Source: Tenacibaculum singaporense
GTDB lineage: Bacteria; Bacteroidota; Bacteroidia; Flavobacteriales; Flavobacteriaceae
Reading direction: 5' to 3'
Length of the DNA: 64,000 nucleotides
Assembly (NCBI RefSeq): GCF_003867015.1
Contig: NZ_CP032548.1
Span: forward strand, 124,001 to 188,000
Shown here one piece after another: positions 12,810-43,772 of this stretch. Position 1 is the stretch's first letter; every line of letters begins with the position of its first letter. The notes beneath the pieces are model-generated. The model did not search any database. It was not told the origin of the DNA and worked only from the letters and a program-made list of their open reading frames with translations. Made by a program: the position numbers and the translations under genes.

Positions 12810-12883
12810 GGTCCTATAGCTCAGTTGGTTAGAGCACCTGACTCATAATCAGGGGGTCCATGGTTCGAGCCCATGTGGGACCA
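12810..12883 (+). tRNA. tRNA with CAT anticodon (Met, or Ile2 if lysidine-modified)
   Basis: A full cloverleaf folds: acceptor GGTCCTA with TGGGACC, D-arm GCTC/GAGC, anticodon arm CCTGA-CTCATAA-TCAGG, T-arm CATGG-TTCGAGC-CCATG, discriminator A. It is 74 nt and CCA is not encoded. A CAT anticodon occurs in elongator Met and Ile2 tRNAs. The missing C1-A72 mismatch rules out initiator. The 3' end serves as the left attachment site of the downstream island, whose insertion keeps the tRNA intact. Confidence 0.93.
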
Positions 12884-12891
12884 CTTTTAAA
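12864..12891 (+). repeat. Left attachment repeat (attL) in the tRNA 3' end
   Basis: TTCGAG-C-CCATGTGGGACCAC-T-TTTAAA. It differs from 43745-43772 only at 12870 (C/T) and 12885 (T/C). The 14-bp identical core covers the T-arm 3' strand and acceptor stem, a classic integration target. Confidence 0.8.
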
Positions 12892-12927
12892 CCCTTGAAA
12901 ATGTTGATTTTCAAGGGTTTGTTTTTT
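12889..12927 (+). terminator. tRNA terminator supplied by the island
   Basis: A 14-bp perfect stem (AAACCCTTGAAAAT and its complement) with a GTTG loop is followed by TTTTTT. It lies inside the island end and so replaces the original tRNA terminator, now at 43769-43799. Confidence 0.85.
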
Positions 12928-12932
12928 AACAA

Positions 12933-12950
12933 GGAAAGCAGAGGGGAAAG
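12933..12950 (+). repeat. Left GGAAAG-N6-GGAAAG motif (candidate integrase arm site)
   Basis: Two GGAAAG hexamers at a 12-bp period, followed by an A-tract, about 40 bp inside attL. The same arrangement and orientation occurs at 43617-43634 inside the right end. They may be arm-type integrase binding sites or preserved ends of related elements. Confidence 0.45.
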
Positions 12951-13050
12951 AAAAAATATAAATAAACACCTTACCCTTTTTAGTTTCGCTTCTTTATTTT
13001 TTAAATTAACCACCCCTATCCATTATTCTTTTTCCAAAAAGCATCACAAA

Positions 13051-13313
13051 TTAAGGTTTTACATCTGTTATCATTCTTAGCATTCCTCTTTTATTAATTA
13101 CTCCTTCTATTTTATGGTCTAAAGGAGTAACCTCTTTAATCCCGGATGAGTTTTTTGTCTTTTTATGTTGAACAGTTATAAATTCATCATCCGTGTTAAT
13201 TTCAAGTAAGTTAAGAAAGTCAGAGACTCTTAAACCTACCCAAAAACCAATAATAACTATATCTCTACAATCTTCTAATTTTTTATCGTTATAAAATCAT
13301 GATTAAAAGTCTG
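13051..13313 (-). pseudogene. Tyrosine recombinase remnant next to the tRNA
   Basis: The minus-strand frame reads LEDCRDIVIIGFWVGLRVSDF, then about 30 residues later HKKTKNSSG and VTPLDHKI. This is the start of a phage-integrase catalytic domain with the box I arginine (GLRVSD) and the beta-hairpin lysine region. It lines up with RARDIFLIGVYSGQRFSDY of the intact integrase at 42299-43585. The box II HxxR and the catalytic tyrosine are missing: the frame ends at a TAA (13051) and begins after an in-frame TGA (13314). A further piece (SSAKKILTDF) is visible upstream in another frame. It is a decayed integrase, not identical to the intact one. Confidence 0.7.
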
Positions 13314-13690
13314 TCAATATCTTTTTCGCAGAGCTACAAACACACTTTTTTCTTTGATAACGGAAACTCTCTGGATCACAAAAGCAATTTTAATCAACTA
13401 ATTAATAGTGTTTTGTTTTTTTAAGGGTAAGTTTTGTGGTGATTTGTTGTAAGTAAGTGTTAGTTAAAAATAGATGTTTTTTAAATTGAATTATTTGCTT
13501 TTACTTCTCCTTAATTTTCTAATACTAACATTAAATTAATTATCAAACCCAAAAAACTCCTTAACTTCAATAGCAAAAGCAATTTCACCTCCAATTAAAA
13601 TAATAATTATCCCAAACTCTTTTAAAACCAGTAATCAATTCTTCATTTCTTTTTATAATCAATGATAAAATATTACTATTATTAAGTTTT
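13314..13690. other. Gene-poor decayed stretch beside the integrase remnant
   Basis: No intact gene is seen. On the minus strand around 13320-13390 a 25-residue open stretch ends SSAKKILTDF and looks like the upstream part of the integrase remnant after a frameshift. Around 13540-13615 (minus) another short hydrophobic reading ends EIAFAIEVKEFFGFDN. Both are too short to name. The base composition is very A+T-rich. Confidence 0.4.
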
Positions 13691-13696
13691 AACCAA

Positions 13697-13724
13697 GAAA
13701 AAAGCGAACGTTTTTAACGCTCGC
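13697..13724 (-). terminator. Curli operon terminator
   Basis: On the minus strand, AGCGAGCGTT-AAA-AACGTTCGCT (one mismatch) is followed by TTTTTT. It sits 26 nt past the stop of the last gene of the curli operon. Confidence 0.8.
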
Positions 13725-13749
13725 TCTCTCAGTAATTGTTAGTTCTCTT

Positions 13750-15249
13750 TTACTCCCAATCTGGCATTGTAGCATTTTCAAACAATGCTGTTCTTGTTGT
13801 AGACCCTTCACTAAAAGGTACTTTATAAATTGTTCTTGTGGAAATTCCATCATTGGATGTATTCACAAAGATAATTTCAGCCTCATTAGGTGATAAGCGT
13901 GGGTCTAAATCATTTGTTCCATCAGCTTTTCCTTCTGATAAATCAGTAACTTCTGCTGTAGCAAACTCATATAAAAAGATATGACTATTTAGTAGTCTAT
14001 AATTACTCGATTCATATTCAGAAATATCTCTAGTGTATAACAGCGAGCTTCCATCTATTGTAAAATTAATCCCTCCTGCAGCTCCTTGTACTCCTGTTAA
14101 AACATTGTCAATTATATTTCCTGTCATATCAATCGTATAGATTTGTACATTATACCCACTTGTATTATTGGTTTTCAGTGCTATTTTAGATTCATCATTA
14201 CTCCAATCGCATTCAGTAATATAATTACCATCTATTGTTTGATATATTTGCTGTAAACCGCTTCCATCTTTATTTATCAAATATAATTTATCGTAATGCG
14301 GATATATGATTCGATCTCCATTTGAAGACCAAGAGAAATCAACTTCGTTTAAATCAAACGCAACTACAGGAACATTAGAAGTAACTTTTTTAACACCTGA
14401 ACCATCTGTATTCATTGTATAAATGTGAGTTTCGTTATTGTCTGTCCGTAAGAAGGCAACCAAATTCGCTGCTGAATTTTTTCTAGGTCTCCAGGAGTTT
14501 GTGGTTGGGGAGGTTAACAAAAGTTCATTTATTGGCGCTTCATTAATATAGTCTCCTGAGTAAATAACATTATTTCCCTCTTCCTGTCTTGTATAAAAGT
14601 ATCTATTATCAGGTGTTGATGTTACTTTAAATGTACTTACAGTACTTAATACTTCTGCATTAATATTATCTGAAGCAGCTACTTGCCAAAAATATTTTAC
14701 TCCAAATTTTAAATCGGTTACCGTATACAAAGTGTCTTTTACATTTTCAAAAGATATAACATCATTATTAAAGTCGTTTTTAATCTCTATTCTGTATGTT
14801 ATTTCATCTTCATCTGGGTCGGTTGATTTAAAACTTAATTCTACCGTGTTATTTACATCTTCTATACCACTTACTGGGGATCTTAATTCTGGAGCAGTTG
14901 GAGGGTCGTTTAAAGCTGTTTCTATATCTAATTCAAAAACTACATTAATTTCTGCCTCTGCTCCTAAACCCACAGGTTCAAAACCTGTTAAAAATCCTTC
15001 TTTAGTTGCACTTACGGAATAGTCTTGTGCTGGCACATTTTCCATTAGAAAGTAACCATCTTCATCTGTAAAAGTTGTATTATTGGTTGGTGACAATGTA
15101 ATTTTAGCATTGGCTATTGGTTCAAAACTTCTCTTTTTAACTACACGCCCTTTAATAGTGCCAAATTCAACAAAATCCACAGTATCTTCACTACAGTTAA
15201 ATAAGGTTACACACATTAAAAGTATTGTTATTTTTATTATGCTTTTCAT
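13750..15249 (-). CDS. Curli-operon lipoprotein with FN3-like and TolB-type propeller domains
   Basis: 499 aa from the ATG at 15249. An upstream in-frame ATG would add 16 charged residues and overlap csgG, and only the 15249 start gives a clean lipoprotein signal (ILLMCVTLFNCSED). Residues about 25-110 form a carboxypeptidase-regulatory-like fold (GTIKGRVVKKRSFEPIANAK). Residues about 115-215 form a fibronectin-III-like domain (DEDEITYRIEI, then FWQVAASDN). Residues about 220-499 form a six-bladed TolB/PD40-like propeller (IYTMNTDGSGVKKVT, LYLINKDGSGLQQIY). It is the last gene of the curli operon, 11 nt after csgG. It is not a known Csg component; a surface or periplasmic accessory role is inference. 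Confidence 0.85.
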   Translation of the reverse strand: MKSIIKITILLMCVTLFNCSEDTVDFVEFGTIKGRVVKKRSFEPIANAKITLSPTNNTTFTDEDGYFLMENVPAQDYSVSATKEGFLTGFEPVGLGAEAEINVVFELDIETALNDPPTAPELRSPVSGIEDVNNTVELSFKSTDPDEDEITYRIEIKNDFNNDVISFENVKDTLYTVTDLKFGVKYFWQVAASDNINAEVLSTVSTFKVTSTPDNRYFYTRQEEGNNVIYSGDYINEAPINELLLTSPTTNSWRPRKNSAANLVAFLRTDNNETHIYTMNTDGSGVKKVTSNVPVVAFDLNEVDFSWSSNGDRIIYPHYDKLYLINKDGSGLQQIYQTIDGNYITECDWSNDESKIALKTNNTSGYNVQIYTIDMTGNIIDNVLTGVQGAAGGINFTIDGSSLLYTRDISEYESSNYRLLNSHIFLYEFATAEVTDLSEGKADGTNDLDPRLSPNEAEIIFVNTSNDGISTRTIYKVPFSEGSTTRTALFENATMPDWE

Positions 15250-15260
15250 TACTTTTTTTC

Positions 15261-16610
15261 TTAAAAATAAACATTTATACCTGCTCCTATTCTCCAAATA
15301 AAATCGTTTCTTTTTCCTCTAACTAACTTATCTAAATTATCTGAGCCTAAAAGATAGTTTTCTCCATAAAGAGTTAAACCTATTTTATTGGTTATTAAAT
15401 ACTCTAATCCCAGACCATACTGAAATTTAAACATAGGATTATCTAGGTTTTTTTCTAAAACCGATCCAATCCCAACATACGCATAAGGTGTTAACCTATC
15501 ATAAGGCAACATATTGTATTCTAAAAATAGACTTGATGTTAAAAATGTATTCTCAAAAGATCTTTCATTTTCTAGTGAAAACTTACCTATACTTCCTCCA
15601 AAACTAAATCTTGGATCCTTAAAAAAGTACCTATATTTTAAGTCAAACCCAAACCTTGCAACTGGATTTGAATAATCACCAGAAATTATTGAAGTTCCTC
15701 CCATAACACTCATTGAATTAATAGCCCTTCTTTTTTCTTGTTTTCTATTAAACAATAAAGTATTATCTGCTTCATTTTTTTCTTTTAAATATTCTTTTTT
15801 AAAGAGATTAACAACCGTATCACCTCCTTGAGGAGTCCATAAACCATCTACAACACCTTCTATAATTAACTGCTCTACTGCTTTATCTATAGCTTCTTTT
15901 ACAGCTAATTGCATAGGTTCGTTTTTGGTTACTCCAGTTTCTACTTCTAACAATCTTCTTAAAGAAACATATCTATATAAGTTTGCTGAAATTCCTTGCG
16001 AGAGTATTGTTTTTGAGACATAAATATTTTTTAAGATTTGTCCGTTTGATGTAGATACAGCTCTTAAATACACTGTTATTCTATCCTCTCTATATTGGTT
16101 AGATGCTCCCGCTCCAAAATATCGAACTCCTGAACCCCCTGTAATAATATTAGAATCATAAGAAACCACACCTCCTTCTAAAATAATTCCAGCAAAAAGT
16201 AATGGTGGCATTTTTGTAGAATTAACTCCTTGGTATTCTTGCCTTGTAGACCTTATTATTTGTCGTTCATTTAATAAGTTAGCAATGTTTTCTCTTTCTA
16301 TTGGAGTAAACCATTTTGATTCTTCTAATGATTTTAATAAAATTGATGTACCTCCTTGCGTTACCGCAGTACTAAATGTAGAACCGTTTTCAGTAGGCTT
16401 GTATTGTCCTGTTTGATCTCTAAATTTATAAACTCCTACGATTATTTTTTCGACAGGTTTAATGTTTTTAATTAAATCGTTTTGTAAAGAGGTGTTTTCT
16501 CCTATTCTAGCATTCGTTGTCTGAAATGGCTGATTAAGGTATGCTCCACAACTAGAAAACAAGATAAAACTTAATAAAGAGAATAATAATTTGAGTAATA
16601 GTTTTCTCAT
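15261..16610 (-). CDS. csgG: CsgG-type curli secretion channel with C-terminal barrel-like extension
   Basis: 449 aa, far longer than the ~277-aa enterobacterial CsgG. The lipobox LFSSC puts the lipidated Cys at residue 21. Residues about 40-265 are the CsgG domain (KIIVGVYKFRDQTGQYKP, WFTPIERENIANLLNERQIIR, LLFAGIILEGGVVSYDSN, VYLRAVSTSNGQIL). This nonameric outer-membrane pore exports curlin subunits. Residues about 290-449 look like a small outer-membrane beta-barrel (alternating aromatic strands, YAYVGIG, terminal Phe). It is preceded by csgF (30-nt gap), as expected in the operon. Confidence 0.92.
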   Translation of the reverse strand: MRKLLLKLLFSLLSFILFSSCGAYLNQPFQTTNARIGENTSLQNDLIKNIKPVEKIIVGVYKFRDQTGQYKPTENGSTFSTAVTQGGTSILLKSLEESKWFTPIERENIANLLNERQIIRSTRQEYQGVNSTKMPPLLFAGIILEGGVVSYDSNIITGGSGVRYFGAGASNQYREDRITVYLRAVSTSNGQILKNIYVSKTILSQGISANLYRYVSLRRLLEVETGVTKNEPMQLAVKEAIDKAVEQLIIEGVVDGLWTPQGGDTVVNLFKKEYLKEKNEADNTLLFNRKQEKRRAINSMSVMGGTSIISGDYSNPVARFGFDLKYRYFFKDPRFSFGGSIGKFSLENERSFENTFLTSSLFLEYNMLPYDRLTPYAYVGIGSVLEKNLDNPMFKFQYGLGLEYLITNKIGLTLYGENYLLGSDNLDKLVRGKRNDFIWRIGAGINVYF

Positions 16611-16640
16611 AAAATTTAAGTTATAGTTAATCGTTTTGTT

Positions 16641-17057
16641 TTAATTGTTTGGTATTATTATCTGTGTTTGTTCACCAGTTTGTGTGTTTAAAATATTCAC
16701 TGATAATCCCCCGCTTGTAGGTGTAACTTCTACTACTAAAGACCCAAATACATAAGTTCCTACAGTTAATCCTTGATCTCCAAACTGTTCTTGAAATAGG
16801 TCTTGCGACAATGAATTTAGTAATTGCCTGTTTAAGCTATTTGTAAAATTTTCTAAATCTGAAGGCTGTTGAAAAGGATCTTGTCCTTCTTCTTGAAAGT
16901 CGTTTTGTGCATTAGCTGAAGCCAAAATTTGCTGATACCCGAATGGATTGTTTCCTCCAAAAAACGGATTTACCGGTTTATAAACTAGTTCTTGTGAAAA
17001 AGCAAATGAGCTTAGTAAAAATAAAACTATTGTTATAAGTTTGGTTACTATTTTCAT
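16641..17057 (-). CDS. csgF: Curli assembly protein CsgF
   Basis: 138 aa with a cleavable signal peptide ending SFAFSQ. The mature N-terminus LVYKPVNPFFGGNNPFG followed by Q-rich ANAQNDFQ is the hallmark CsgF segment, which inserts into the CsgG pore and couples secretion to surface nucleation. The C-terminal half (GTYVFGSLVVEV, GEQTQIIIPN) is the beta-rich head. It lies between csgE and csgG with short gaps, so the order E-F-G is conserved. Confidence 0.93.
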   Translation of the reverse strand: MKIVTKLITIVLFLLSSFAFSQELVYKPVNPFFGGNNPFGYQQILASANAQNDFQEEGQDPFQQPSDLENFTNSLNRQLLNSLSQDLFQEQFGDQGLTVGTYVFGSLVVEVTPTSGGLSVNILNTQTGEQTQIIIPNN

Positions 17058-17068
17058 AATTTACTTTT

Positions 17069-17806
17069 TTAAATTTTATAACTTAATAATGTGTTTCTCT
17101 GTTTTGAATAACTACTTAATCTTACCAAAGATGCTTTAACAGCTCGTTTAAGAAAATCTTCTCCTGGCATAGTCATAAACTCAAAAATCTTTTTATCATC
17201 AGCTTCAATAATTAAAACTGTAGTTCTTCTTAATCCTGGTTTTTCTTTTATTTTTATGATAAAAGGATATTTTAAGCCTGAGAGCAGATACTCTTGATAA
17301 AAAAAGTCATAAAAGTCTTTTCCTATTTTTGTTATTGCTTCTTCAATAACCAATCCTTTTAATATAAAATTAGACTCATCTATTTTTTCTTTATTCATTA
17401 CACCTACCTTTTTAGGTATTATTACTAGAGTGTCTTTATCTATTAATTTTTTCCTGTGCCTTATAAATAAATAAGCTCTTAATTCTTCATCAGGGTTTAA
17501 ACTCAATCTTATTAATGAAAGCTCTTTTTTCTCGTTAGGTTTTAAAGAAAATTCTCCCGATTGTTTATTGTTAGAATAGTTTCCTTCTTTATTCTTTTTT
17601 AGTACTAATAAGTTATAATTAAGCTCATCTTTAAACAACACTCCTTCGTTTTCAGCTTCTGCTTTTACAGTTATAAAATTATCTTTTTTAAGAACAAGTA
17701 TTTTAGCTTTAACATTGCTTATTTCTTGAGCAAAGCTTGTAGTTATACACAGTAACAATAGAGTGACATATTTTAAAACGTTTCTAAAAAAAATAAACCT
17801 TAACAT
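17069..17806 (-). CDS. csgE: CsgE curli chaperone fused to a CsgC/CsgH-like N-terminal domain
   Basis: 245 aa, against ~130 aa for enterobacterial CsgE. After a signal peptide (LLLCITTSFAQ), residues about 27-130 form a beta-sandwich resembling the curli chaperones CsgC/CsgH (YNLLVLKKNKEGNYS, QSGEFSLKPNEKKELS, LRAYLFIRHRKKLIDKDTL). Residues about 138-245 are CsgE (LKGLVIEEAITKIGKDFYDFF, RRTTVLIIEADDKKIFEF, AVKASLVRL), the periplasmic cap that delivers curlins to CsgG. The CsgE half is confident. The CsgC/H resemblance is by eye. Confidence 0.88.
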   Translation of the reverse strand: MLRFIFFRNVLKYVTLLLLCITTSFAQEISNVKAKILVLKKDNFITVKAEAENEGVLFKDELNYNLLVLKKNKEGNYSNNKQSGEFSLKPNEKKELSLIRLSLNPDEELRAYLFIRHRKKLIDKDTLVIIPKKVGVMNKEKIDESNFILKGLVIEEAITKIGKDFYDFFYQEYLLSGLKYPFIIKIKEKPGLRRTTVLIIEADDKKIFEFMTMPGEDFLKRAVKASLVRLSSYSKQRNTLLSYKI

Positions 17807-17809
17807 TTT

Positions 17810-18265
17810 TTAATAATTCCTAACTATAATTGTTTTATAATTAGATTTTTGAATGATTTTTACATTTTCCATCAAAGAGTTTGTTCCATAAATAAGCAAT
17901 GAATTAGCATTACCTTCTTGAAGAGTATTTATTTTTGTTGGTGAGTTATTATAATAATCTATGAAATTATAATAGTTATCTCTACCTTTTTGCCCAATCA
18001 ACTGTATGTCATTTATTCCGTTTTTAACTTCTGCAACATTATTAACTCCTAACTGATTTATTGATAAATCATAATTATCAATCGATTTATCATAATCTTG
18101 TAAATTATTTAATGAGTTAATATTTTTTTCTAAAACTAGAAAAGAAGCATCACTTCCTATTTGAGGTACAGACACAAAGTAAGTAGATGTATTTTGTTGT
18201 GTCATAGCTTTTAAACTAAATATTAATAGGATTATACACAATATCATTTTTATCCTTCTCATCAT
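17810..18265 (-). CDS. Curlin-like minor subunit (CsgB-like candidate)
   Basis: 151 aa with a signal peptide (MILCIILLIFSLKAMTQ). The mature part has degenerate curlin-type repeats, Q-x-G-x2-N spaced about 20-23 residues apart: INQLGVNNVAEV, IQLIGQKGRDN, TLQEGNANSLL, IIQKSNYKTI. It sits between the major curlin and csgE, 3 nt from csgE. The divergent, less regular repeats and short length fit a nucleator or capping subunit, but this role is inferred. Two adjacent Met codons leave the start ambiguous by one residue. Confidence 0.7.
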   Translation of the reverse strand: MMRRIKMILCIILLIFSLKAMTQQNTSTYFVSVPQIGSDASFLVLEKNINSLNNLQDYDKSIDNYDLSINQLGVNNVAEVKNGINDIQLIGQKGRDNYYNFIDYYNNSPTKINTLQEGNANSLLIYGTNSLMENVKIIQKSNYKTIIVRNY

Positions 18266-18344
18266 TACTTTAGTTTCTTATTAATAAGGGAGAGGAAAAG
18301 AAAACCCTCCCATTCTCCCTTATCTTTGTTGCTTAATTAAAAAT

Positions 18345-19253
18345 TTATAATCCTGTTTGTTCAACACAAGCTTTGTTCATGTAACCTGCCTGTCCAATAA
18401 AACTAGCGTTTCCAGAACCTTGTGCATCTTGAATAACAGAAGCATGATTTTCTACACCAAATTGACTAATTAAACTTAAGTTAATCCCTGCATCTGCATT
18501 TTGATCAACGCAAGCTTTGTTACCCCAACCTGTTTGTGCAATACCAGAAATATTTAAACCTCCATTTGAAGATTGATTTGTAGAAGCTACATTTCCGTTG
18601 CCAAACTGAGCAATACCATCTATATTAAAGCTACCTCTTTGAACTTGTTTAGCTTTATTATAATTACCAATTTGTAAAATACCCGCTACACTTCCTGGCG
18701 CACCATTAGTTCCTGTGCTTTGATCTTGATGAGCAAAGTTTCTTCTACCTGATTGTGCTACAATAGCTACATTATTATCATAACGTTGTTTTTGAATAGA
18801 AGTGTTTTGACGTCCTGTTTGATAAGCATAAGCTCTGTTGTTTTCTGCCCAACCTACACCAACATCTTGTTGTGCATAGTTTTTATATCCTACTTGATTT
18901 ACAAAACCAGAGTTATAATCTCCATGTTGTTTAATGTCGGTTTCGTTCTTTCTTCCTCTTTGATATACAGTAGCTTCATTTCCCAAACCTCCTGAAAACC
19001 CTTGATTCTGACCATCTTGATCAATTTTAGACAGGTTTCCAACTCCGGTTTGAACAACACTTGCGTCATTCATATGTCCTGTTTGATCTACATAACTTGT
19101 GTTAATTACGGCTCCTCTATTTCCATAGGAAGGTCCTACTTGCGAAACTGAACATCCAAGACAATTAGCTTTAGGTGTTGGTAATGGATTAGCGAACTGT
19201 GCAAAAGCTGTTCCTGAAGCTAAAAAAATAGCTGCTAATAAAAAATTTTTCAT
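18345..19253 (-). CDS. Major curlin-type amyloid subunit
   Basis: 302 aa with signal peptide MKNFLLAAIFLASGTAFAQ. The rest is about a dozen curlin repeats of the form Q-x-G-x2-N-x-A (VVQTGVGNLSKIDQDG, VYQRGRKNETDIKQHG, FVNQVGYKNYAQQD, GIAQFGNGNVAS, GIAQTGWGNKACVDQ, SFIGQAGYMNKACVEQTG), the strand-loop-strand units that stack into amyloid fibres. It is twice the length of E. coli CsgA. Four cysteines (two after the signal peptide, two in NKAC repeats) are unusual for curlins and could form cross-links. It is the first gene of the curli operon, so its promoter lies in the 19254-19599 region. Confidence 0.88.
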   Translation of the reverse strand: MKNFLLAAIFLASGTAFAQFANPLPTPKANCLGCSVSQVGPSYGNRGAVINTSYVDQTGHMNDASVVQTGVGNLSKIDQDGQNQGFSGGLGNEATVYQRGRKNETDIKQHGDYNSGFVNQVGYKNYAQQDVGVGWAENNRAYAYQTGRQNTSIQKQRYDNNVAIVAQSGRRNFAHQDQSTGTNGAPGSVAGILQIGNYNKAKQVQRGSFNIDGIAQFGNGNVASTNQSSNGGLNISGIAQTGWGNKACVDQNADAGINLSLISQFGVENHASVIQDAQGSGNASFIGQAGYMNKACVEQTGL

Positions 19254-19599
19254 AATAGATAATTTTAAAATACGTTAGTTAATTTTTAGCATACTCTATC
19301 TACGACAAGCATACAAATAGTAATGATGCTTATTGTGGGAGAATGCTAGTAAATAAGGGTAAGATAAAATTATGGGGTAAAATGCAAAGGTTAGTTTGAT
19401 AACCGTGATTACATCCATCAGTTTAAAATAAAACTGTAAGAAACTATATATAGTTTGTCTGTTTAAACGTAGCTAATATACGATTTTTTCAGTTTCAAAA
19501 ACCAATAAAGATTTCTTTACTTTTAAAAAAAGTGAATAAGAGAAGCCAAAAACACGCTATAAACGTAGCCTTTAGCTTTACATTTCTTTATCCTTAATT
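19254..19599 (-). promoter_or_regulatory. Upstream region of the curli operon, with a 16-bp palindrome
   Basis: This stretch before the major curlin gene must hold the operon promoter, but I see no convincing TAnnTTTG on the minus strand; TAACCTTTG near 19385 is one base too long. A perfect palindrome AAACTATATATAGTTT lies at 19441-19456, about 190 bp upstream of the start codon, and could bind a dimeric regulator. No csgD-like regulator gene is nearby. Confidence 0.35.
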
Positions 19600-19629
19600 T
19601 AAAAAAAGGGGAGAATCCCCCTTTTTTTT
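19600..19629. terminator. Intrinsic terminator of the RadC-like gene
   Basis: The stem AAAAAAAGGGG / CCCCTTTTTTT with an AGAAT-containing loop has A- and T-tracts on both sides, so it can work in either direction. It lies about 170 nt past the stop of the RadC-like gene and insulates the curli promoter region. Confidence 0.8.
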
Positions 19630-19799
19630 AATGTATTTTCTTCTTTAAAATAAGTTACTTTATCTAATAAACAAAAGTTTTTTATTTCTTGTTAAGTAGT
19701 ATTTGTCTTTTTGCTTCTTTACTTTATTCGATTAGTCTGATTAGGGAAAATAAAAGTATTAACGAATTAATTTTGTTACCTTATAATTAGAAATTTGTT

Positions 19800-20423: not shown

Positions 20424-21195
20424 AAAAACAAATGTAAGATTTTATTGTTTACAAATCATACACTTCTAAAAACTGTCTAACCTCACTAGGGCATAGCTTT
20501 TTTATGTTTAGCAACCTCAATAGACAAATTTCGATTATTTCATTAATTGTTACTCAGACTACTCGTAAGTAATAGTATTTCTCGAAAAGCTTCTTTTTAT
20601 TGTAAATTATGTTCATTAATAATGCTTTAAATACTGTGTATAATAGTATCAGCTCTATTAGTAAATTCCTCTCTTATAAAAAACATAAAAAAATGTTAAT
20701 TTTTTTTATATATTTATACTGAATTATTAAAAATATTTTTTTAGCGATAGCTCCCTTTAAATTGTCTCATTAAATGAAATTATAGATGAAATAACAGTAT
20801 TACAAGTATAAACTAAATCCAAGTCTCCCAATTATGAAACACCTTTATTCTCTCAAATCTAACGTAAAATTCACATTAGGTTTTATCATTCTCCTATGTA
20901 AAACTCAGACCTCTACTTTTAAAAAAGAGGTAGTTACTAAGCTCTCAAAAAAATTACAAAATATATTTAATGAGTTTTTTCAATCCTTTCAAACAGTTTG
21001 TGGGATTTACTCTAAAATATATCCATACAAATTTAACGTAATTATAAACCACAACTAACTATAAAAACACTCTAATATGTTTTTATATAGTTTTTGTATT
21101 CAATTTACACATAATTTACACCATCAATATGGTTAATATATAATTACAATTCTGTATTTGTATCATACTCTGTTTTAAATAAAAATTAGCTTTAT
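20424..21195. other. A+T-rich intergenic region between RadC-like gene and adhesin
   Basis: No intact gene is supported. On the minus strand at 20449-20553 an open stretch ends in IKKLCPSEVRQFLEVYDL and a stop. It looks like the C-terminus of a lost protein but has no start codon. A 74-codon plus-strand frame at 20834-21058 has no protein-like features. The last ~130 bp must contain the adhesin promoter; no clear TAnnTTTG is seen. Confidence 0.35.
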
Positions 21196-36789: not shown

Positions 36790-36805
36790 ATTACATATAA
36801 ATAAG

Positions 36806-38719
36806 ATGAAAAAAGCAATATATTTTTTACTTATAATAGCATTTATACCGACCACTATTAGCGGTCAGCGAAAGTATGCTGCCAATAAGTATTTTGAAGA
36901 GTTTTCTTATAAAAAATCTGCTGAATTATATCAAACTATTTACAATAAAGGAGATAATTCTTATACTGTATTAAGTAGATTGGGAGATTCGTATTACTTT
37001 AATTTTGAGTACACTTTGGCAGAAAAAAACTATCAAGAGCTAATGAAATTATACGAAGACACTGCCAAACCCCAACATATATTTAGGTATGCTCAGGTTT
37101 TAAAAACCAATAGTAAGGTAAAAGAATCTGACAAATGGTTATTAAAGCTAAATAAAAATGATAGTCGAGTAAAAGCTCTAGAAGAAAATACTAATTATTT
37201 TGTTGAATACTCTAATCGAGACAAAACATATATAAATATTCACAACCTATCTAGCAACACTTCTTATTCAGACTTTGGAGGGTCTATTTATGGTAATTAT
37301 TTATACTTTTCTTCAACTCAACCTAAAACAGAAAAAGACAAAAAACTCTATAGATGGAATAAACAACCATATTTAAACATTTATAAAGCAAAACAAAGTA
37401 CCGACTCTATTAAAATTTTGGATGTAGAGAAACCTATCCTTCTTAAAGGGTTAAGCACTAAATATCACGAATCAAACATTGTTATTTCTAAAGATGGAAA
37501 AACAGCTTATTTTACTAGAGACAATTTTGATGGTAAGCGATTAGTTGGAGATGAAAATAATATTTCCCATCTTAAAATTTATAAGACTACTAAAAAAGGA
37601 AATATTTGGGGTGAGGTGAAAGAACTTCCTTTTAATAGTAATAATTTTTCTTGCGGACATCCCGCCCTCAGCCCTGACGAAAAAACACTTTACTTTGTTT
37701 CTGATATGCCTAACGGCTACGGAGGCACCGATATTTATAAAATAGCAATTTTGAAAAATGATGCTTTTGGAAAACCTGAAAACCTTGGTAAGACTATTAA
37801 TACAGAAAGCAAAGAAATGTTTCCTTTTATAGGAAATGATAATGTTTTGTATTTTTCTTCTGATGGACATATTGGCTTAGGAGGTTTAGATGTTTTTGAG
37901 GTAAAAATCACGAATAACTCTTATACAAAACCAGTAAATTTAGGAAGCCCTGTAAATAGTCCTTTTGATGATTTTGCTTTCATTATTAACGACAAACATA
38001 CTCAAGGTTACTTTTCTTCCAACAGAAAAGAAGGTAAGGGAGATGATGATATTTATAGTTTTAAAATATACGACTGTAAAGAGAATATTAAAGGAGTTAT
38101 ATCAGACTCAAGAACAGGTACACCTATTCCCAATGCTATCGTTCAGCTTATAAACAAACAAGGAAAGCCCATTTTGACTAAAACAACCAATAAAGATGGT
38201 AGTTATTTATTTGAAAAAGTAGATTGTGAAAAAAGTTTTGTAGTCGTTGCCTCAAAAAAAGATTACCGAAATTCTCAAAAAAACACAAAAACACTTGACA
38301 TTAACAAAAGGTTAATTACTGAGAACATCCAACTTGAATCTTTAATAATAGATGATCAAATTATTATAAATCCTATTTACTTTGATTTTGACCTGTATAA
38401 TATTCGTGAAGACGCCGAATATGAATTAGAACATATCGTTTCTGTATTAAAAGACAACCCTGATATAAGTTTAAGAATTGAGTCTCATACAGATAGTAGA
38501 GGATCGCAAACATATAATAAATTATTATCAGACAAAAGAGCCAAATCTACAAGAGACTATATATTATCAAGAGGTATTTCTTCTAAAAGAATAAAAAGTG
38601 CTATTGGTTATGGCGAAGAACAGCTGTTAAACAACTGTAATGACTTAAATCAAAATAAGTGTACCGAAAAAGAACACCAACTAAACAGAAGATCATATTT
38701 CTATATAGAAAAAAAGTAA
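36806..38719 (+). CDS. OmpA-family protein with TPR, PD40 and regulatory domains
   Basis: 637 aa with a signal peptide (IIAFIPTTISGQ). Residues about 25-130 are TPR-like helices (YSYKKSAELYQTIYNKG). Residues about 150-420 are PD40 propeller repeats (SPDEKTLYFVSDMPNGYGGTD, LYFSSDGHIGLGG). Residues about 425-500 are a carboxypeptidase-regulatory-like fold, and about 520-637 an OmpA peptidoglycan-binding domain (YFDFDLYNIREDAE, SHTDSRGSQTYNKLLSDKRA). The same architecture is common behind PorP/SprF genes. It probably anchors the export or adhesin complex to peptidoglycan. The gap to SprF is 16 nt: a three-gene adhesin-SprF-OmpA operon. Confidence 0.9.
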   Translation: MKKAIYFLLIIAFIPTTISGQRKYAANKYFEEFSYKKSAELYQTIYNKGDNSYTVLSRLGDSYYFNFEYTLAEKNYQELMKLYEDTAKPQHIFRYAQVLKTNSKVKESDKWLLKLNKNDSRVKALEENTNYFVEYSNRDKTYINIHNLSSNTSYSDFGGSIYGNYLYFSSTQPKTEKDKKLYRWNKQPYLNIYKAKQSTDSIKILDVEKPILLKGLSTKYHESNIVISKDGKTAYFTRDNFDGKRLVGDENNISHLKIYKTTKKGNIWGEVKELPFNSNNFSCGHPALSPDEKTLYFVSDMPNGYGGTDIYKIAILKNDAFGKPENLGKTINTESKEMFPFIGNDNVLYFSSDGHIGLGGLDVFEVKITNNSYTKPVNLGSPVNSPFDDFAFIINDKHTQGYFSSNRKEGKGDDDIYSFKIYDCKENIKGVISDSRTGTPIPNAIVQLINKQGKPILTKTTNKDGSYLFEKVDCEKSFVVVASKKDYRNSQKNTKTLDINKRLITENIQLESLIIDDQIIINPIYFDFDLYNIREDAEYELEHIVSVLKDNPDISLRIESHTDSRGSQTYNKLLSDKRAKSTRDYILSRGISSKRIKSAIGYGEEQLLNNCNDLNQNKCTEKEHQLNRRSYFYIEKK

Positions 38720-38861
38720 TTTGTATTAGTTAATTTATGAGTCATTCTAAAATCCATTGATAACATATTTTTAATTAGGTGTTTTAGTTTTATATAGAGT
38801 GTGTCTTAAAATAAGTTTACACATTTTTATGTTAATCTTAGTATAAGGTTACAACTTGCTT

Positions 38862-40700
38862 TTAAGTTCTGTTTTGATGTTTATGGGTTATCATAGTTGG
38901 CAATACTGACAGATAGCTATGTGGTAGGTTGGTTTGTACATAGGTATATAGCTGTTTTGCTGTATAATTGCCTTTTTCATATTTCTTGATGGCTGTTGTA
39001 ATTTTCTTTTGATAGGTCGCTTTGCGATTTCTTGCGTTTTGTTGCGTTTGTCGTTGCGCTTTTTCTATTGCCTTTTGTTCCTGATACTTTACATGGGTTT
39101 TCCAAACTTTATGCAAGCCGAAAAAGCCTATCTCATGGGTTTGGGTACGTGTTTTATCAAAGTACAATGAGGGATACAATGCGGTTACTTCTGATTTGAT
39201 AAACCATTTGCGGGCAAACTCTAGTTTCCAACGATATTCTTTGAGCTTTTGAATTAGGGTTGCTTTTTGAGTAATGTTTGTAAATAGTTCGTTGTTTAGG
39301 TAATTGATGGCTTTTTTCCATTCGCCTACATAGACATTGTGCTGTTTCCAAAGTTTTGCAGATGTTTTGATACAATCTTGTAGTAAAACTGCCTTAAACT
39401 CTTCAGTCGTTACATTTGCGTAGAGTTCTATTTTTTGCAAATAGTCATAACGCAATCCTTTGTAACTGTCATACACACCATCTGCTAATTGTTGGGCTAG
39501 TTCTCTATCGTCTTGCAATCGAGCTAAAAAATTATGCGTAAGCGGACTGTTTGTGCCTTGGTTTGGTTTTTCTTGCTTTAAAAAATCAGGCAATAGGGCT
39601 TTGACTGCTTTGAAAGTTTGGCGCGGGCGAGTGGTTGTTTTCTTACTTATCACTGTGGTGTTCTTGTAGAAGCCGTCCGCAGGACATATAAATTCTTCCT
39701 TTTGAAACTCTGTGTTATGTACACAGTCTTTTATTTCTTTTTCTTTTAATAAAAAGGTTCTAGTAGTATCATTATTATCTGGTAATTCTTTCCAGTTCTC
39801 CTGTTTAAAAGATTGGTTTTCAATTCTTTTGGGTTTTGGTGGATTTCCGTCTAAAATTGTTAGAATTTCAGGGTGGAAATTAACCGTTATCGGTTTGTAT
39901 TGGTTGATATATGCATAGTTGATTAAGATGTTGGCTTCTCTAAGGCGTTTGATGTGGTTTTGCGCTGTTTTTTTGCAAATAGCAAGTCTTGGTATCTCTG
40001 CGATGGTATGTGTCGCTAATTTGCGATGGTCTATGGTTAGCTTTGGTAAGGCTTTTTTTAATACACTGGTTGGACGATTCATTTCTAAGAGATATGAATT
40101 GCGTTGTTTTAATTGGGCGATATAAAAGCCTACCAAGACATTAAATAAAAGCTCCGTGGTGTACTTGATAGTTGGTTTGCGCTTTTTTGCGATATAGTTT
40201 GCGTTTTTTTGCGCATTGAATTTTGCTACCTCTTTGTTGTAAGTACTTGTAAATTCACTACGGTGTTTCTTTGTAAAGTCTGCAACTTGTTGGGCTAGTG
40301 TTGGAGTGTTAGGAGCTATGACCGTTTTGTTATACTCAGCTATGGCTTTGTTATATTCTACAGCTTGCTGATTATAGCTATGTACATATTGACGGTAGTT
40401 ATCCATCGTGCTTTTCATAGCGCTTCTATCTAAAAAAGGATAGTTGATATAGTTGTAGTGTTTACTTATCGCTTTTTCATGCTCTTTTCCCTTTTTTAAA
40501 AGCAAATACCCGTGTTGGGTATTAAATTCCTCTACGGCTTTGTTGTATTGCGTATTGTTTAGCTTATTGCGCTGCGCATTGTCTTTAAATAGCTTGATAG
40601 CTAGTTGGGTTATCGCATCCAACGTTGTGTTTTGTAAATACTCATGTACTTTTTGATTGTACAATCCTATCGCTGTGAGCGATGTATTATTTTTTTTCAT
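38862..40700 (-). CDS. Large winged-helix protein of the mobile-element block (unknown function)
   Basis: 612 aa, very basic and rich in Lys, Asn, Gln and Tyr. The N-terminal ~170 residues are helical with repeated YN-x2-V motifs (YNKAVEEFNTQHG, YNKEVAKFNAQ). Around residues 225-270 lies a winged helix-turn-helix (HTIAEIPRLAICKKTAQNHIKRLREANILI), resembling those in replication initiators or regulators. The C-terminal part is helical and basic (QRQTQQNARNRKATYQKKI). I do not recognise a named family. Position next to excisionase, repressor and integrase suggests replication or maintenance of the element. A hairpin-rich region lies immediately upstream. Confidence 0.7.
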   Translation of the reverse strand: MKKNNTSLTAIGLYNQKVHEYLQNTTLDAITQLAIKLFKDNAQRNKLNNTQYNKAVEEFNTQHGYLLLKKGKEHEKAISKHYNYINYPFLDRSAMKSTMDNYRQYVHSYNQQAVEYNKAIAEYNKTVIAPNTPTLAQQVADFTKKHRSEFTSTYNKEVAKFNAQKNANYIAKKRKPTIKYTTELLFNVLVGFYIAQLKQRNSYLLEMNRPTSVLKKALPKLTIDHRKLATHTIAEIPRLAICKKTAQNHIKRLREANILINYAYINQYKPITVNFHPEILTILDGNPPKPKRIENQSFKQENWKELPDNNDTTRTFLLKEKEIKDCVHNTEFQKEEFICPADGFYKNTTVISKKTTTRPRQTFKAVKALLPDFLKQEKPNQGTNSPLTHNFLARLQDDRELAQQLADGVYDSYKGLRYDYLQKIELYANVTTEEFKAVLLQDCIKTSAKLWKQHNVYVGEWKKAINYLNNELFTNITQKATLIQKLKEYRWKLEFARKWFIKSEVTALYPSLYFDKTRTQTHEIGFFGLHKVWKTHVKYQEQKAIEKAQRQTQQNARNRKATYQKKITTAIKKYEKGNYTAKQLYTYVQTNLPHSYLSVLPTMITHKHQNRT

Positions 40701-41198: not shown

Positions 41199-41426
41199 TT
41201 ATTGTTCAAAACTCTCTACTATCTTTTCTAAAAATTGAATTTTAGGGATATGGTATTTACCGTCTTGAAAGATTGCTTGAATGGTGTTTTTATGGATGCG
41301 GTTTTTAACCGTATTAGGGTGTACCTTTAAATACTTTGCGCAACCATCTACAGTAAGCATCGTATCATTGGCATTAAAAATGGTTAAGGCTTTAAGGTTT
41401 ACTTTTAATAAGTCTGCTTGGGTCAT
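41199..41426 (-). CDS. Excisionase-like helix-turn-helix protein
   Basis: 75 aa from the ATG at 41426. A TTG two codons earlier is a poorer start. The C-terminal half is a MerR/Xis-type winged helix (LTVDGCAKYLKVHPNTVKNRIHKNTIQAIFQDGKYHIPKIQF), as in the HTH_17 excisionase family that bends DNA during excision. It is divergent from the repressor gene with a 162-bp operator-like region between, the usual layout of a lysogeny-type switch. Whether it is an excisionase or only a regulator of the downstream winged-helix gene is not decided. Confidence 0.75.
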   Translation of the reverse strand: MTQADLLKVNLKALTIFNANDTMLTVDGCAKYLKVHPNTVKNRIHKNTIQAIFQDGKYHIPKIQFLEKIVESFEQ

Positions 41427-41497
41427 ATTCAATTTTTAAATTTTTGTGCTATTTTTTATTTTTTGCTCACAAATACCAATAATCTATCGTTAATTGT

Positions 41498-41565
41498 TAT
41501 ATTTGTGGATAATTATGACACAAAAATAAAATCAATTGTCAACTTTTAGAATAAATTGTGGACAA
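41498..41565 (+). promoter_or_regulatory. Repressor promoter with candidate operators
   Basis: TATATTTG at 41498-41505 fits the -7 consensus and reads toward the repressor. TTGTGGATAA (41503-41512, overlapping the -7) and TTGTGGACAA (41556-41565) are direct copies. TTGTCAAC (41536-41543) is close to their reverse complement. Three related sites between divergent regulator genes suggest operators for the CI-like repressor. Confidence 0.45.
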
Positions 41566-41588
41566 AATAATTTAAAGAAATTGATAAG

Positions 41589-42302
41589 ATGTTGAAAACC
41601 AGTTCGGAAATTTTACAGGAGTTATTAGACCATTTAGGTATCAAAGCAAACCGCTTATCAGTAGAGATTGGAGATAATAGCAATTCTCGTATCTACTATG
41701 TAAGAAATGGAAGAAGTAAAATAAGTCCAAAGCTTGCCAAAGCGATTACTAATAGATATAAAGAGATTAACTATATGTATTTGCTTACAGGAGAGGGGGA
41801 ACTTGTCAACAAGGACACTATGGTCAATGCAAATGGAAATGTTTTTGTAGAAAAACCTGATGGTAGTTTTAACGTAACTACACGATTGATTCCTTTTGAT
41901 GCCTATTCTTCTTTTTTAGAAACACTAGATGATGCAAATGTGATTTATGAATGGGAGGAAGTAACTTTTAATGTAGAGAAGTACGGTCGTGGTAATTACG
42001 AAGCGTTTAGGACTAAAAATGATAGTATGAACGGTGGCGGAATTAATGATACCCCTAATAGAGCTTTGGTGTTGGGTAGAGAACTTGGACGCCATCATTG
42101 GATGGATGGATTCAATCCTACTTTATACGGATGGATTATTCTTTCTAAGCAGAATGTTTTTCACAAGGATATTATCGGACTGGATAAAGAAAACGGGACG
42201 ATTATTTGCCATAGTAGAAATAAAAGCCCCGAGTATTCAGATTTTGAGTTAGACCTTAATGAAGTGTATCAAATTTTTAAAGTGATTAAAAGAACGTTTT
42301 AA
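41589..42302 (+). CDS. CI-like phage/element repressor (HTH plus S24-like domain)
   Basis: 237 aa. The N-terminal ~70 residues form a helix-turn-helix (EILQELLDHLGIKANRLSVEIG, RIYYVRNGRSKISPKLAKAI) with the INYMYLLTGEGE linker typical of Bacteroidota XRE repressors. The C-terminal half resembles a LexA/CI S24 domain: AFRTKNDSMNGG holds the expected Ser-Met nucleophile context, followed by a VLGRELGR segment. The catalytic lysine cannot be assigned with confidence. Its stop codon overlaps that of the convergent integrase. It probably keeps the excisionase-like gene off. Confidence 0.8.
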   Translation: MLKTSSEILQELLDHLGIKANRLSVEIGDNSNSRIYYVRNGRSKISPKLAKAITNRYKEINYMYLLTGEGELVNKDTMVNANGNVFVEKPDGSFNVTTRLIPFDAYSSFLETLDDANVIYEWEEVTFNVEKYGRGNYEAFRTKNDSMNGGGINDTPNRALVLGRELGRHHWMDGFNPTLYGWIILSKQNVFHKDIIGLDKENGTIICHSRNKSPEYSDFELDLNEVYQIFKVIKRTF

Positions 42303-43585
42303 CCCCAAGTAATATTCATATAATCAAATACAGAGTCTTGACTTGTTTTTTTATACTTGGCTAAAGTTTCTGTATTCCTTATCCCTGTAATTTTCATAAT
42401 GATGTGGTCGGGCATTCCTTTTTCCGAAGATAATGTTATGAACGTTCTTCTCGCTGTGTGGCTGACTACCATTTTCCACTTTTCCTGATACTCAACTTCT
42501 TTTTTATTCCCTCTATGCGTAGTTTTCTTTACTATATTATTAATTTTAGCCCTCATACACACTTCCTTAATGTATGGATTAAATTTTTGTGTAGACATTT
42601 GAGGTATTTTCCAATCAAACCTATCCAATAATACCCTTAATTTATTATGCAAGGGAATAAAACTTTCTTTTTCTGTTTTATCTGCCCTTTTGATTATTAT
42701 TTCTCCTTTTTTAGTTTGCACTATATCTTCTTTTTCAAAAACAGAATAATCCGAAAAGCGTTGTCCTGAATATACACCTATCAAAAAAATATCTCTAGCT
42801 CTCTGTAGAACTTCACTTCTTAAATAAACCCTTTCTATTTTCTTTATTTCTTCGTCTGTCAAATGAATATCATCGGTATCGTATTCATCAACTGGATTTG
42901 TTAATTCCTGAATTTCAATTTTATAATTTTTTCTTACCCATTTTAAAAATGTGAATAATAAATTAACATGCCTATATAATGTATTGTCTGATTGACCTAC
43001 TTTTGGAACTATAGACTTTATTTCTTTAGCTTTTTTCTTATCTACCAAGTTCGGGAAATCACGTAAAAAACCGCAATAAGCATCTAACCAATTTTCGTTT
43101 AAATCTGTAAAAACTGTTTGCCTTTTCTTATAAACATCAAATAAGGTTATCTTATTCTTTAAATTGGTATATTTCTTCTTCCAATTATCCGACACTCCAC
43201 CTCCTTTTTTCTTATTTTCAATAAATACTTCAATAGCATCTTTAACATTAAAAGGTATCTTATCATCCTTATAATTTGCATTAAATTTTTTCTCAAAAAT
43301 TAGTTTTAAATCTTCTCTTGTTAAATGTCGGTTTTGAATTTTAAAATCAGAAATCGCATCTTCTAAATGTTTCCTATAATTATCCAAAACAAGAGCTATT
43401 TGTTTATTCTTTTTTCCAGATGCTCCACGTTTTAATTTTGGGTATCGGGCAGAGAAATCCCAATCCGCAGGAATTATTTTTTGTCCTGTACTGTATTTGA
43501 AGTTTTTCTTTTCAGCTTTTAAATGATAAATTAAATCAATTACTGTAGCTTTGTCTGACTTGGGTTGTTTAAGATAAAAATACAT
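42299..43585 (-). CDS. Tyrosine site-specific integrase
   Basis: 428 aa from the ATG at 43585; a TTG start 27 nt upstream would add nine residues. It has an arm-type DNA-binding N-terminus (YFYLKQPKSDKATVIDL, STGQKIIPADWDF), a SAM-like core-binding domain (about 110-220) and a C-terminal catalytic domain. Catalytic residues: box I Arg in YSGQRFSDYS, Lys in IIKRADKTEKE, HTARR (HxxR), and Tyr in TLAKYKK. At the usual box III histidine (LGH) this protein has TGI, an uncommon substitution. The gene begins 160 bp from attR, as expected for a tRNA-targeting element. Confidence 0.93.
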   Translation of the reverse strand: MYFYLKQPKSDKATVIDLIYHLKAEKKNFKYSTGQKIIPADWDFSARYPKLKRGASGKKNKQIALVLDNYRKHLEDAISDFKIQNRHLTREDLKLIFEKKFNANYKDDKIPFNVKDAIEVFIENKKKGGGVSDNWKKKYTNLKNKITLFDVYKKRQTVFTDLNENWLDAYCGFLRDFPNLVDKKKAKEIKSIVPKVGQSDNTLYRHVNLLFTFLKWVRKNYKIEIQELTNPVDEYDTDDIHLTDEEIKKIERVYLRSEVLQRARDIFLIGVYSGQRFSDYSVFEKEDIVQTKKGEIIIKRADKTEKESFIPLHNKLRVLLDRFDWKIPQMSTQKFNPYIKEVCMRAKINNIVKKTTHRGNKKEVEYQEKWKMVVSHTARRTFITLSSEKGMPDHIIMKITGIRNTETLAKYKKTSQDSVFDYMNITWG

Positions 43586-43616
43586 AATTACAATTTTTCC
43601 CAAATATAACAAAAAG

Positions 43617-43634
43617 GGAAAGAGAACGGGAAAG
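43617..43634 (+). repeat. Right GGAAAG-N6-GGAAAG motif (candidate integrase arm site)
   Basis: Two GGAAAG hexamers with 12-bp period followed by an A-tract, just upstream of the integrase start and 111 bp inside attR. Same orientation and spacing as 12933-12950. Confidence 0.45.
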
Positions 43635-43744
43635 AAAAACTATTTTTAACTGTATTTACACAAAACAAAAACACACAACAAACCCTTGTAAAACCTATAT
43701 TTTATTGGGTTTTTGAATTTTCACACACAACAACAAACAATTAC

Positions 43745-43772
43745 TTCGAGTCCATGTGGGACCACCTTTAAA
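43745..43772 (+). repeat. Right attachment repeat (attR), displaced tRNA 3' end
   Basis: TTCGAG-T-CCATGTGGGACCAC-C-TTTAAA repeats the last 20 nt of the tRNA plus 8 flanking bases, with two mismatches to 12864-12891. There is no tRNA 5' half here. The T variant keeps the T-loop valid, so this was probably the original 3' end before integration. Confidence 0.8.

What the first reader, a model, noticed from the sequence alone, without database searches (positions are those of the whole stretch)
12864..43772. tRNA-integrated island carrying both a curli operon and a giant T9SS adhesin
A 28-bp repeat of the tRNA 3' end (26/28) bounds 30.9 kb with an integrase next to the right copy. Two unrelated surface-adhesion systems (curli amyloid and a SprB-like type-B adhesin with SprF/OmpA partners) sit inside. 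This would make adhesion and biofilm formation a horizontally acquired trait in this strain. tRNA islands are well known; this cargo pairing is, as far as I know, not a described unit.
Basis: partly seen in the sequence, partly recalled or inferred. Interest (0 to 1): 0.75.

Follow-up and report, generated by a model that had tools for sequence, protein, structure and literature searches.

The report
Mobile island carrying relocated curli genes
In a marine Tenacibaculum bacterium, the only curli (amyloid fibre) operon and a giant surface adhesin lie on a 30.9-kb island in a tRNA gene; two other species carry copies of the island that are nearly letter-identical to each other while their flanking DNA differs, so it likely jumped between species recently, and small scars suggest that its curli genes were captured from their usual place on the chromosome.

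Summary
A 28-bp repeat (26/28) of the tRNA-Met 3' end bounds 30.9 kb, with an intact tyrosine integrase beside the right copy. Curli and a T9SS adhesin-SprF-OmpA cassette lie inside. The host is an unnamed Tenacibaculum.

In three the tRNA end runs straight into sequence like that beyond the right repeat. T. discolor and T. larymnensis carry the island at the same tRNA. Their copies differ at 4 of 21,922 compared bases, while DNA outside the repeats differs by 3.6% (left) and 11.1% (right): likely recent transfer as one unit with these ends.

New: curli is not foreign to the genus. In 28 of 30 non-island CsgG loci read it sits between an AIR-synthase-like gene and glutamine synthetase. In the three island carriers that site holds an acetyltransferase gene instead. 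The island's curli block ends with the last five codons and stop of that glutamine synthetase and abuts a decayed AIR-synthase fragment: likely capture from a native locus.

Cassette and mobility module have relatives elsewhere, so the island is a mosaic. Excision, transfer route and fibres are untested. Adhesion in general is not island-dependent: the genome has ten further CHU_C matches.

The parts
12810..12884 (+). tRNA-Met(cat), integration target
   Evidence: ARAGORN
12864..12891 (+). left repeat (attL): tRNA 3' end
   Evidence: 26/28 with right copy; G022/G063 have no mismatch from beside it through 12,458 island bases
13057..13344 (-). decayed integrase remnant of the IntB (tRNA-Arg island) family, residues about 237-332
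   Evidence: 64% aa, E 3e-36, to a G131 integrase; stops present
13367..13450 (+). relic resembling an IntB att site and the left arm of the tRNA-Arg island
   Evidence: score 51 to the G022 island arm, 500 mononucleotide shuffles max 28; the att core alone is borderline, 29 against max 28
13579..13670 (-). decayed fragment of the AIR-synthase-like gene that flanks native curli
   Evidence: score 62 against 500 dinucleotide shuffles max 32
13679..19677 (-). curli block as homologous to the native locus
   Evidence: 91% over 6.0 kb to G017 native block
13750..15297 (-). CarboxypepD_reg / propeller-like protein that ends the curli operon
   Evidence: Pfam, NCBIfam; beside CsgG in all 28 native-locus loci
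15261..16610 (-). CsgG
   Evidence: PF03783 220 bits
16641..17057 (-). CsgF
   Evidence: PF10614
17069..17806 (-). CsgE
   Evidence: PF10627
17810..18265 (-). second curlin-like protein
   Evidence: weak NCBIfam CsgA match 1e-4, under cut-off
18345..19253 (-). curlin-repeat subunit (CsgA/B-like)
   Evidence: PF07012 73 bits
19659..19677 (-). scar: last five codons and stop of glutamine synthetase III (LLFIR*)
19800..20423 (-). RadC-like JAB protein
   Evidence: PF04002; relatives (79-86% aa) near the native curli locus in G000, G055, G071
20681..38721 (+). adhesin cassette (adhesin-SprF-OmpA)
   Evidence: alignment ends agree within 12 bp with copies at other places in G071 and G055
21196..29640 (+). 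adhesin, first ORF (ends at a frame change in the repeat array)
29664..35858 (+). adhesin, second ORF with CHU_C type IX sorting domain
   Evidence: PF13585 84.6 bits
35869..36789 (+). SprF/PorP
   Evidence: PF11751, TIGR03519
36806..38719 (+). OmpA/PD40 protein
   Evidence: PorE-like but under cut-off
38862..40700 (-). mobility module: 612-aa protein, possibly a replication initiator
   Evidence: 97% DNA to the tRNA-Arg island of the same genome; one relative named Replication protein; weak, non-significant winged-helix hits incl. Rep
41199..41432 (-). mobility module: 77-aa HTH protein, candidate excisionase
   Evidence: HTH_17 3.8e-5, under cut-off; PHROG excisionase 0.05; 100% aa in tRNA-Arg islands of G000, G022
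41589..42302 (+). mobility module: XRE-like repressor candidate
   Evidence: own HTH_3 match only E 0.072, under cut-off; many relatives carry HTH_3
42299..43612 (-). intact tyrosine integrase
   Evidence: PF00589, PF17293; among 166 genus genomes 98% copies only in G022 and G063, next best 64%
43745..43772 (+). right repeat (attR)

Best explanation
A 30.9-kb genomic island sits in the 3' end of a tRNA-Met gene; it was likely put there by its own tyrosine integrase, has likely passed between Tenacibaculum species as one unit, and its curli operon was likely captured from the operon's usual chromosomal site between an AIR-synthase-like gene and a glutamine synthetase gene. The integrase would recombine the tRNA 3' end with the island's copy; the 77-aa HTH protein would act as excisionase and the XRE-like protein as repressor (predicted from weak domain matches only). 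Curli brings its own secretion channel (CsgG/E/F) with it. The adhesin brings only its SprF and OmpA partners and would need the chromosomal type IX secretion system, whose SprA is encoded elsewhere in this genome. The island likely grew by accretion: tRNA-Arg-island relics, curli block, RadC, adhesin cassette, and a mobility module shared with the tRNA-Arg island of the same genome but joined to a different integrase. At the native curli site the three island carriers hold an acetyltransferase gene, so each keeps one curli operon, now on the island. Shown: ends, empty and filled sites, identity step at the repeats, native locus and scars. Inferred: integrase action, excision, transfer, order of events, donor.
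For: Empty sites: in G071, G017 and G049 the tRNA end runs straight into sequence like 43745-43814 (to 43828 in G049, then on to 44655). Filled: G022 (T. discolor) and G063 (T. larymnensis). G022 against G063: left flank 58 mismatches in 1598, island 0 in 12,458; right flank 326 in 2937, island 4 in 9464; published OrthoANI 94.7% (PMC10013915, passages). Distribution: in a 3.5-kb marker G071, which is empty, is nearest to this genome, and grouping the three carriers is rejected, p-AU 0.0004. Native locus: 28 of 30 non-island CsgG loci flanked by AIRS-like and GlnA genes; the three carriers hold a GNAT gene there. Scars: glutamine synthetase tail; AIRS fragment, score 62 against shuffle maximum 32. 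The six curli-block genes differ from G022 by 70 synonymous and 27 nonsynonymous codons (the short CpD-CsgG overlap is counted twice).
Against: A second marker (972 bp) does not reject the three carriers as a clade, p-AU 0.45, and there G022 (90.7%) is as near to this genome as G071 (90.5%). The curli tree puts the island copy with G017/G131 but without firm support (82/83), and placement with its host clade is not rejected, p-AU 0.176, so the donor is open. No relaxase, conjugation or capsid domain was recognised in the 14 of 20 island ORFs of 100 aa or more that were scanned (the other six run antisense inside the adhesin and OmpA genes), so the transfer route is unknown. Only three carriers were found, and both other carriers' contigs end inside the repeat array, so the middle is not compared. 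The AIRS fragment is only 92 bp. Between this genome and G022 the island is a mosaic (79-99% by part), so it was not inherited as one block over that longer time.
Confidence: 0.82

Rival explanations
1. The island is old and vertical in this clade; relatives without it lost it, and the high identity in T. discolor and T. larymnensis is conservation.
For: The three carriers all belong to one six-genome clade; the shorter marker does not reject them as a group.
Against: 4 mismatches in 21,922 bases, synonymous and intergenic sites included, against 3.6% and 11.1% outside the repeats.
Confidence: 0.07
2. The block moved by homologous recombination in flanking DNA (allele exchange), not by its integrase.
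For: The native curli locus looks exchanged that way: its AIRS gene does not follow the marker (G022-G065 93.4% against 85.4%; G017-G071 96.5% against 86.6%).
Against: The identity step lies at the repeats on both sides (within about 180 bp on the left), and the flanks on each side differ between the two species.
Confidence: 0.12
3. Curli came to the genus on the island and then settled in the AIRS-GlnA locus.
For: Patchy curli: 34 of 166 genomes have a CsgG match.
Against: The island copy carries the tail of glutamine synthetase, a gene present at the native site also in genomes without curli there; the native placement spans loci down to 55% CsgG identity, whereas the island is in three close genomes.
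Confidence: 0.04

Closest known systems
tRNA-integrated genomic islands with a tyrosine integrase (for example KpGI-5, a fimbrial island in a Met-tRNA gene of Klebsiella, PMC3419637; search listing and start of abstract only)
   Same: tRNA 3'-end repeats, integrase at one end, adhesion cargo, empty sites in relatives (general features recalled)
   Different: cargo is curli plus a T9SS adhesin cassette; the curli block bears scars of its native locus; mobility module shared with a second island that has another integrase
Curli / type VIII secretion operons of Bacteroidetes (PMC3521004, passages)
   Same: CsgA/B, E, F, G present; no CsgC or CsgD recognised in the curli-block ORFs
   Different: that survey concluded horizontal transfer is a minor player in curli spread; here a curli operon rides a recently moved island
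SprB-type T9SS type-B adhesins (name recalled)
   Same: giant repeat protein with CHU_C end followed by SprF and an OmpA protein
   Different: 37 copies of an Ig-like 88-aa unit; SprB orthology and gliding role not tested
tRNA-Arg(acg) islands of the same genome and of T. discolor
   Same: same 612-aa, HTH and XRE-like genes, 95-97% DNA in this genome; own tRNA repeat
   Different: a different integrase (31% aa) and target tRNA; no CsgG match in the stretches read

Membership tests
tRNA-integrated genomic island | tRNA 3'-end direct repeats at both ends | tested here: met
   26/28
tRNA-integrated genomic island | site-specific integrase next to one end | tested here: met
   PF00589 with arm-binding domain
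tRNA-integrated genomic island | empty site in relatives | tested here: met
   of 8 relatives read, G071, G017, G049 joined; G065, G139, G055 also lack it; G022, G063 filled
tRNA-integrated genomic island | horizontal transfer | tested here: met
   identity step at both repeats; one of two marker trees rejects vertical grouping
tRNA-integrated genomic island | excision to a circle | not testable with these tools
   needs reads or PCR
integrative conjugative or mobilisable element | relaxase, oriT or type IV secretion genes | tested here: not met
   no such Pfam match in 14 of 20 island ORFs; oriT not searched; 612-aa protein of unknown role
prophage or satellite | capsid, packaging or phage relatives | tested here: not met
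   no such Pfam domain; 612-aa protein has no match in the phage records
curli (type VIII) operon | CsgG, CsgE, CsgF and a curlin-repeat subunit together | tested here: met
curli (type VIII) operon | amyloid fibres made | not testable with these tools
   needs experiment
T9SS type-B adhesin | C-terminal CHU_C sorting domain, SprF partner, T9SS in genome | tested here: met
   PF13585, PF11751; TIGR04131 only 30.1 bits, under its cut-off of 35; SprA on chromosome
T9SS type-B adhesin | one intact reading frame | tested here: not met
   two ORFs in this assembly; the G071 relative has a 4068-aa open frame
SprB gliding adhesin | orthology to SprB | not tested
   name only recalled

The most novel reading that the evidence does not exclude
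Curli has become mobile in Tenacibaculum: islands that sit at a tRNA-Arg 6-9 kb from the native curli locus took up the operon, swapped their integrase beside a shared Rep-Xis-repressor-like module, and so re-aimed it at tRNA-Met, from where it spreads between species while the native site is overwritten with acetyltransferase alleles. Integrase swapping at a conserved mobility module would be a general way for islands to pick up core operons and change target.
Probability: 0.4. Interest if true: 0.75.

Novelty: new variant of a known kind. Interest (0 to 1): 0.6.

Why it matters
Curli spread has been judged largely vertical (PMC3521004, passages). Here a complete curli operon, with its own export genes, rides an island whose compared parts differ at 4 of about 22,000 bases between two species of a genus that includes fish pathogens. 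The scars give a view of how a resident operon becomes island cargo, and the shared mobility module with two integrases suggests how islands change their tRNA target. Both ideas can be tested with more genomes and with PCR.

Tried and rejected
Simple cargo-pair reading: rejected, since curli, adhesin cassette and mobility module each have counterparts elsewhere. A fixed ancestral home for the adhesin: not found; of the 10.8-kb flank of the G055 copy none of 10 relatives has more than about 4 kb in one piece, and pieces lie scattered. Naming the curli donor: unresolved. Island as plasmid or phage part: no match of the 612-aa protein in either collection. Function of the 612-aa protein by fold: model mean pLDDT 80, pTM 0.39; no match at E 0.001 or better; weak hits include winged-helix Rep domains; no significant sequence match in the PDB. 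The tRNA-Arg attR does not match the left relics above chance (score 24, 16 of 500 shuffles as good). The att-core relic alone is borderline (29 against shuffle maximum 28). Content at the native locus does not always go with its flank: G017 and G131 both have curli there, yet their AIRS genes are 91.4% alike against 98.1% for the marker. Rows set aside: G162's CsgG match is partial (48 profile positions) and its locus was not fetched; only one of G173's two CsgG places was read; G131's contig ends shortly after the tRNA-Met, so its site is not counted as empty; hits inside the repeat array or under 40 bases were left out of printed alignments.
Full report
What is there. The integrase's two named matches are in Tenacibaculum discolor DSM 18842 and T. 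larymnensis LAR25, and the relatives used below are of the same genus. A tRNA-Met(cat) gene is at 12810-12884. Its last bases plus the next few recur at 43745-43772, 26 of 28 identical. A 21-base core finds only these two places in the window at up to three mismatches, and none in 100 shuffles. By eye, the right copy is followed by a hairpin-like sequence akin to the one that follows this tRNA in G049, and the left copy by a different one. So the sequence that normally follows the tRNA was displaced.

Genes. Leftwards-reading: a propeller/CarboxypepD_reg protein, CsgG, CsgF, CsgE, a second curlin-like protein, a curlin-repeat subunit, and RadC. Rightwards: the adhesin in two ORFs with Ig-like repeats and CHU_C end, SprF, OmpA. 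Then a 612-aa protein, a 77-aa HTH protein, an XRE-like protein and the integrase. The adhesin array has 37 copies of a 264-bp unit, of which the 30 listed are 87-100% identical to the reference copy; one is one base short, which splits the frame. G071 has a relative with a 4068-aa open frame.

Empty and filled sites. The left flank with the tRNA was sought in 39 relatives and then in 18 chosen genomes, the right flank in 166 genus genomes. Eight relatives were read around this tRNA on loci L093-L102. Two of eight, G022 and G063, hold the island. In three (G071, G017, G049) the tRNA runs straight into sequence like that beyond the right repeat; only in G049 does the match continue through the next gene to 44655. 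Three more (G065, G139, G055) lack the island, with other sequence after the tRNA. A ninth, G131, shows no island end after the tRNA, but its contig stops soon after.

Recent movement. G022 and G063 were compared base by base (gap columns not counted). Left of the island: 58 mismatches in 1598 bases, the last about 180 bp before the end of the left repeat. Island, left part: 0 in 12,458. Island, right part: 4 in 9464. Right of the island: 326 in 2937. So the change lies at the repeats on both sides. Contigs of both genomes end inside the repeat array, so the middle is not covered. The species description gives OrthoANI 94.7% for these two (PMC10013915, passages). In a 3.5-kb marker gene this genome groups with G071 (100/100), which is empty, and a clade of the three carriers is rejected (p-AU 0.0004). 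A 972-bp marker does not reject it (p 0.45), and there G022 and G071 are equally near to this genome.

Curli has a shared place elsewhere. A CsgG match occurs in 34 of 166 genus genomes. Leaving out the three island carriers and G162 (partial match, not fetched), 30 loci were read. In 28 of 30 the operon lies between an AIR-synthase-like gene on the CsgG side and a glutamine synthetase on the subunit side (Pfam names from this genome's copies). Exceptions are G064, with neither flank gene in the 19.9 kb read, and G173, whose one read locus showed no curli gene by tblastn. In this genome, G022 and G063 the same interval holds a GNAT acetyltransferase gene in place of curli: 0.54 kb here, about 1.0 kb in the other two, where the extra half was not scanned. 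The curli-less G065 and G049 are alike there. No genome showed both an island and a native copy; 33 of the 34 have a single CsgG match. The AIR-synthase-like gene does not follow the marker: G022 with G065 93.4% against 85.4%, G017 with G071 96.5% against 86.6%, but G017 with G131 91.4% against 98.1%. So this locus has probably recombined between species (inference), and its flank does not always go with its content.

Scars of capture. The island's curli block (13679-19677) matches the native block of G017 at 91% over its whole length. On the left its end lies within seven bases of the point where curli-free native alleles part from G017. On the right it runs 18-19 bases into the native flank: the last five codons and stop of glutamine synthetase (LLFIR*), sequence also present in the curli-free native alleles. 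Eight bases left of the block lies a 92-bp fragment like the AIR-synthase-like gene in the native orientation; its alignment score is 62, with 500 dinucleotide shuffles reaching at most 32 and the reverse strand 22. Capture from a native locus is the simple reading. Whether this happened in an ancestor of this genome or in another species is open: the curli tree joins the island copy with G017/G131 at 82/83, and placement with the host clade is not rejected (p-AU 0.176).

A second island explains more. In this genome, G022 and G017 an island sits in tRNA-Arg(acg), with its own repeat of that tRNA's end. That tRNA lies about 6 kb (G017) to 9 kb (this genome, G022) from the native curli position. 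In this genome the island carries the 612-aa, HTH and XRE-like genes at 95-97% DNA identity to the tRNA-Met island; the match stops at the edge of the integrase gene, and the two integrases share only about 31% of residues. The dead integrase at the left end of the tRNA-Met island belongs to that other family, and next to it lies a stretch resembling the left arm of the tRNA-Arg island. This suggests that a tRNA-Arg-type island contributed to the present one and that integrases were swapped beside the shared module (inference).

Adhesin cassette. The cassette 20681-38721 has counterparts in G071 and G055, 85-90% identical, with ends that agree within 12 bp. No tRNA lies in the stretches that hold them; the nearest seen is a tRNA-Leu about 10 kb away in G071. 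The flank of the G055 copy is not conserved as a block. Between this genome and G022 the island parts differ unequally: curli 98.1%, integrase 96.6%, 612-aa gene 93.6%, RadC 92.8%, adhesin parts 88-91%, the stretch before the adhesin 79%. So the island is probably reshuffled between transfers.

How it would work. Predicted: the integrase joins island and tRNA end and, with the 77-aa HTH protein, excises; the XRE-like protein represses. No relaxase, conjugation or capsid domain was seen in the 14 of 20 island ORFs scanned, so a helper or another route is needed. Curli would be made with the export genes that travel with it; the six curli-block genes are open here and differ from G022 by 70 synonymous and 27 nonsynonymous codons, which fits maintained function. 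The adhesin would use the chromosomal T9SS (SprA found). The genome has 11 CHU_C matches, ten outside the island, so the adhesin adds to a set, whereas curli exists only here.

Known and new. tRNA islands with adhesion cargo are known. Seven paper searches listed no description of this island or of curli on a Tenacibaculum island. I saw listings and abstract starts (20 of 48 papers) and opened passages of three papers; the library lacks most subscription papers. PMC10013915 lists curli assembly genes in LAR25 and an island prediction without linking them in the passages seen. PMC3521004 concludes that horizontal transfer is a minor player in curli spread. The relocated, scarred, recently moved curli operon is the new part.

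Noticed in passing
43773-46400: The stretch right of the island (Pycsar-effector-like gene, PAS protein) is itself variable: 4.7-5.7 kb sits between the two genes in G022, G063, G065 and G049, and G017 has a partial PAS copy 15 kb before the full one.
   Followed up: partly
24358-34700: 37 copies of a 264-bp repeat (30 listed, 87-100% identical), GC about 48% against about 30% around it; long open frames also run on the opposite strand.
   Followed up: no
L150:6544-7038: The native curli site holds a GNAT gene in this genome and relatives of it in G022, G063, G065 and G049, with about 0.5 kb more there: alternative contents of one locus.
   Followed up: partly
L189:7255-11713: The tRNA-Arg island of the same genome shares its mobility module with the tRNA-Met island but has another integrase; a RadC relative lies at L188:6973-7590.
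   Followed up: partly
L195:10303-10319: In G131 an integrase of that family sits beside a different end sequence (CTCTCTGGGTCAC), close to the relic at window 13367.
   Followed up: partly
L111:3890-7775: In G168 a 62% relative of the intact integrase sits beside another adhesin end (38%) and SprF (33%); no curli in that 15-kb stretch.
   Followed up: no
42299-43612: A 94% relative of the integrase exists in Tenacibaculum sp. 190130A14a (P0003); its locus was not read.
   Followed up: no
L132: G064 has a curli operon with no AIRS or GlnA gene in the 19.9 kb read.
   Followed up: no
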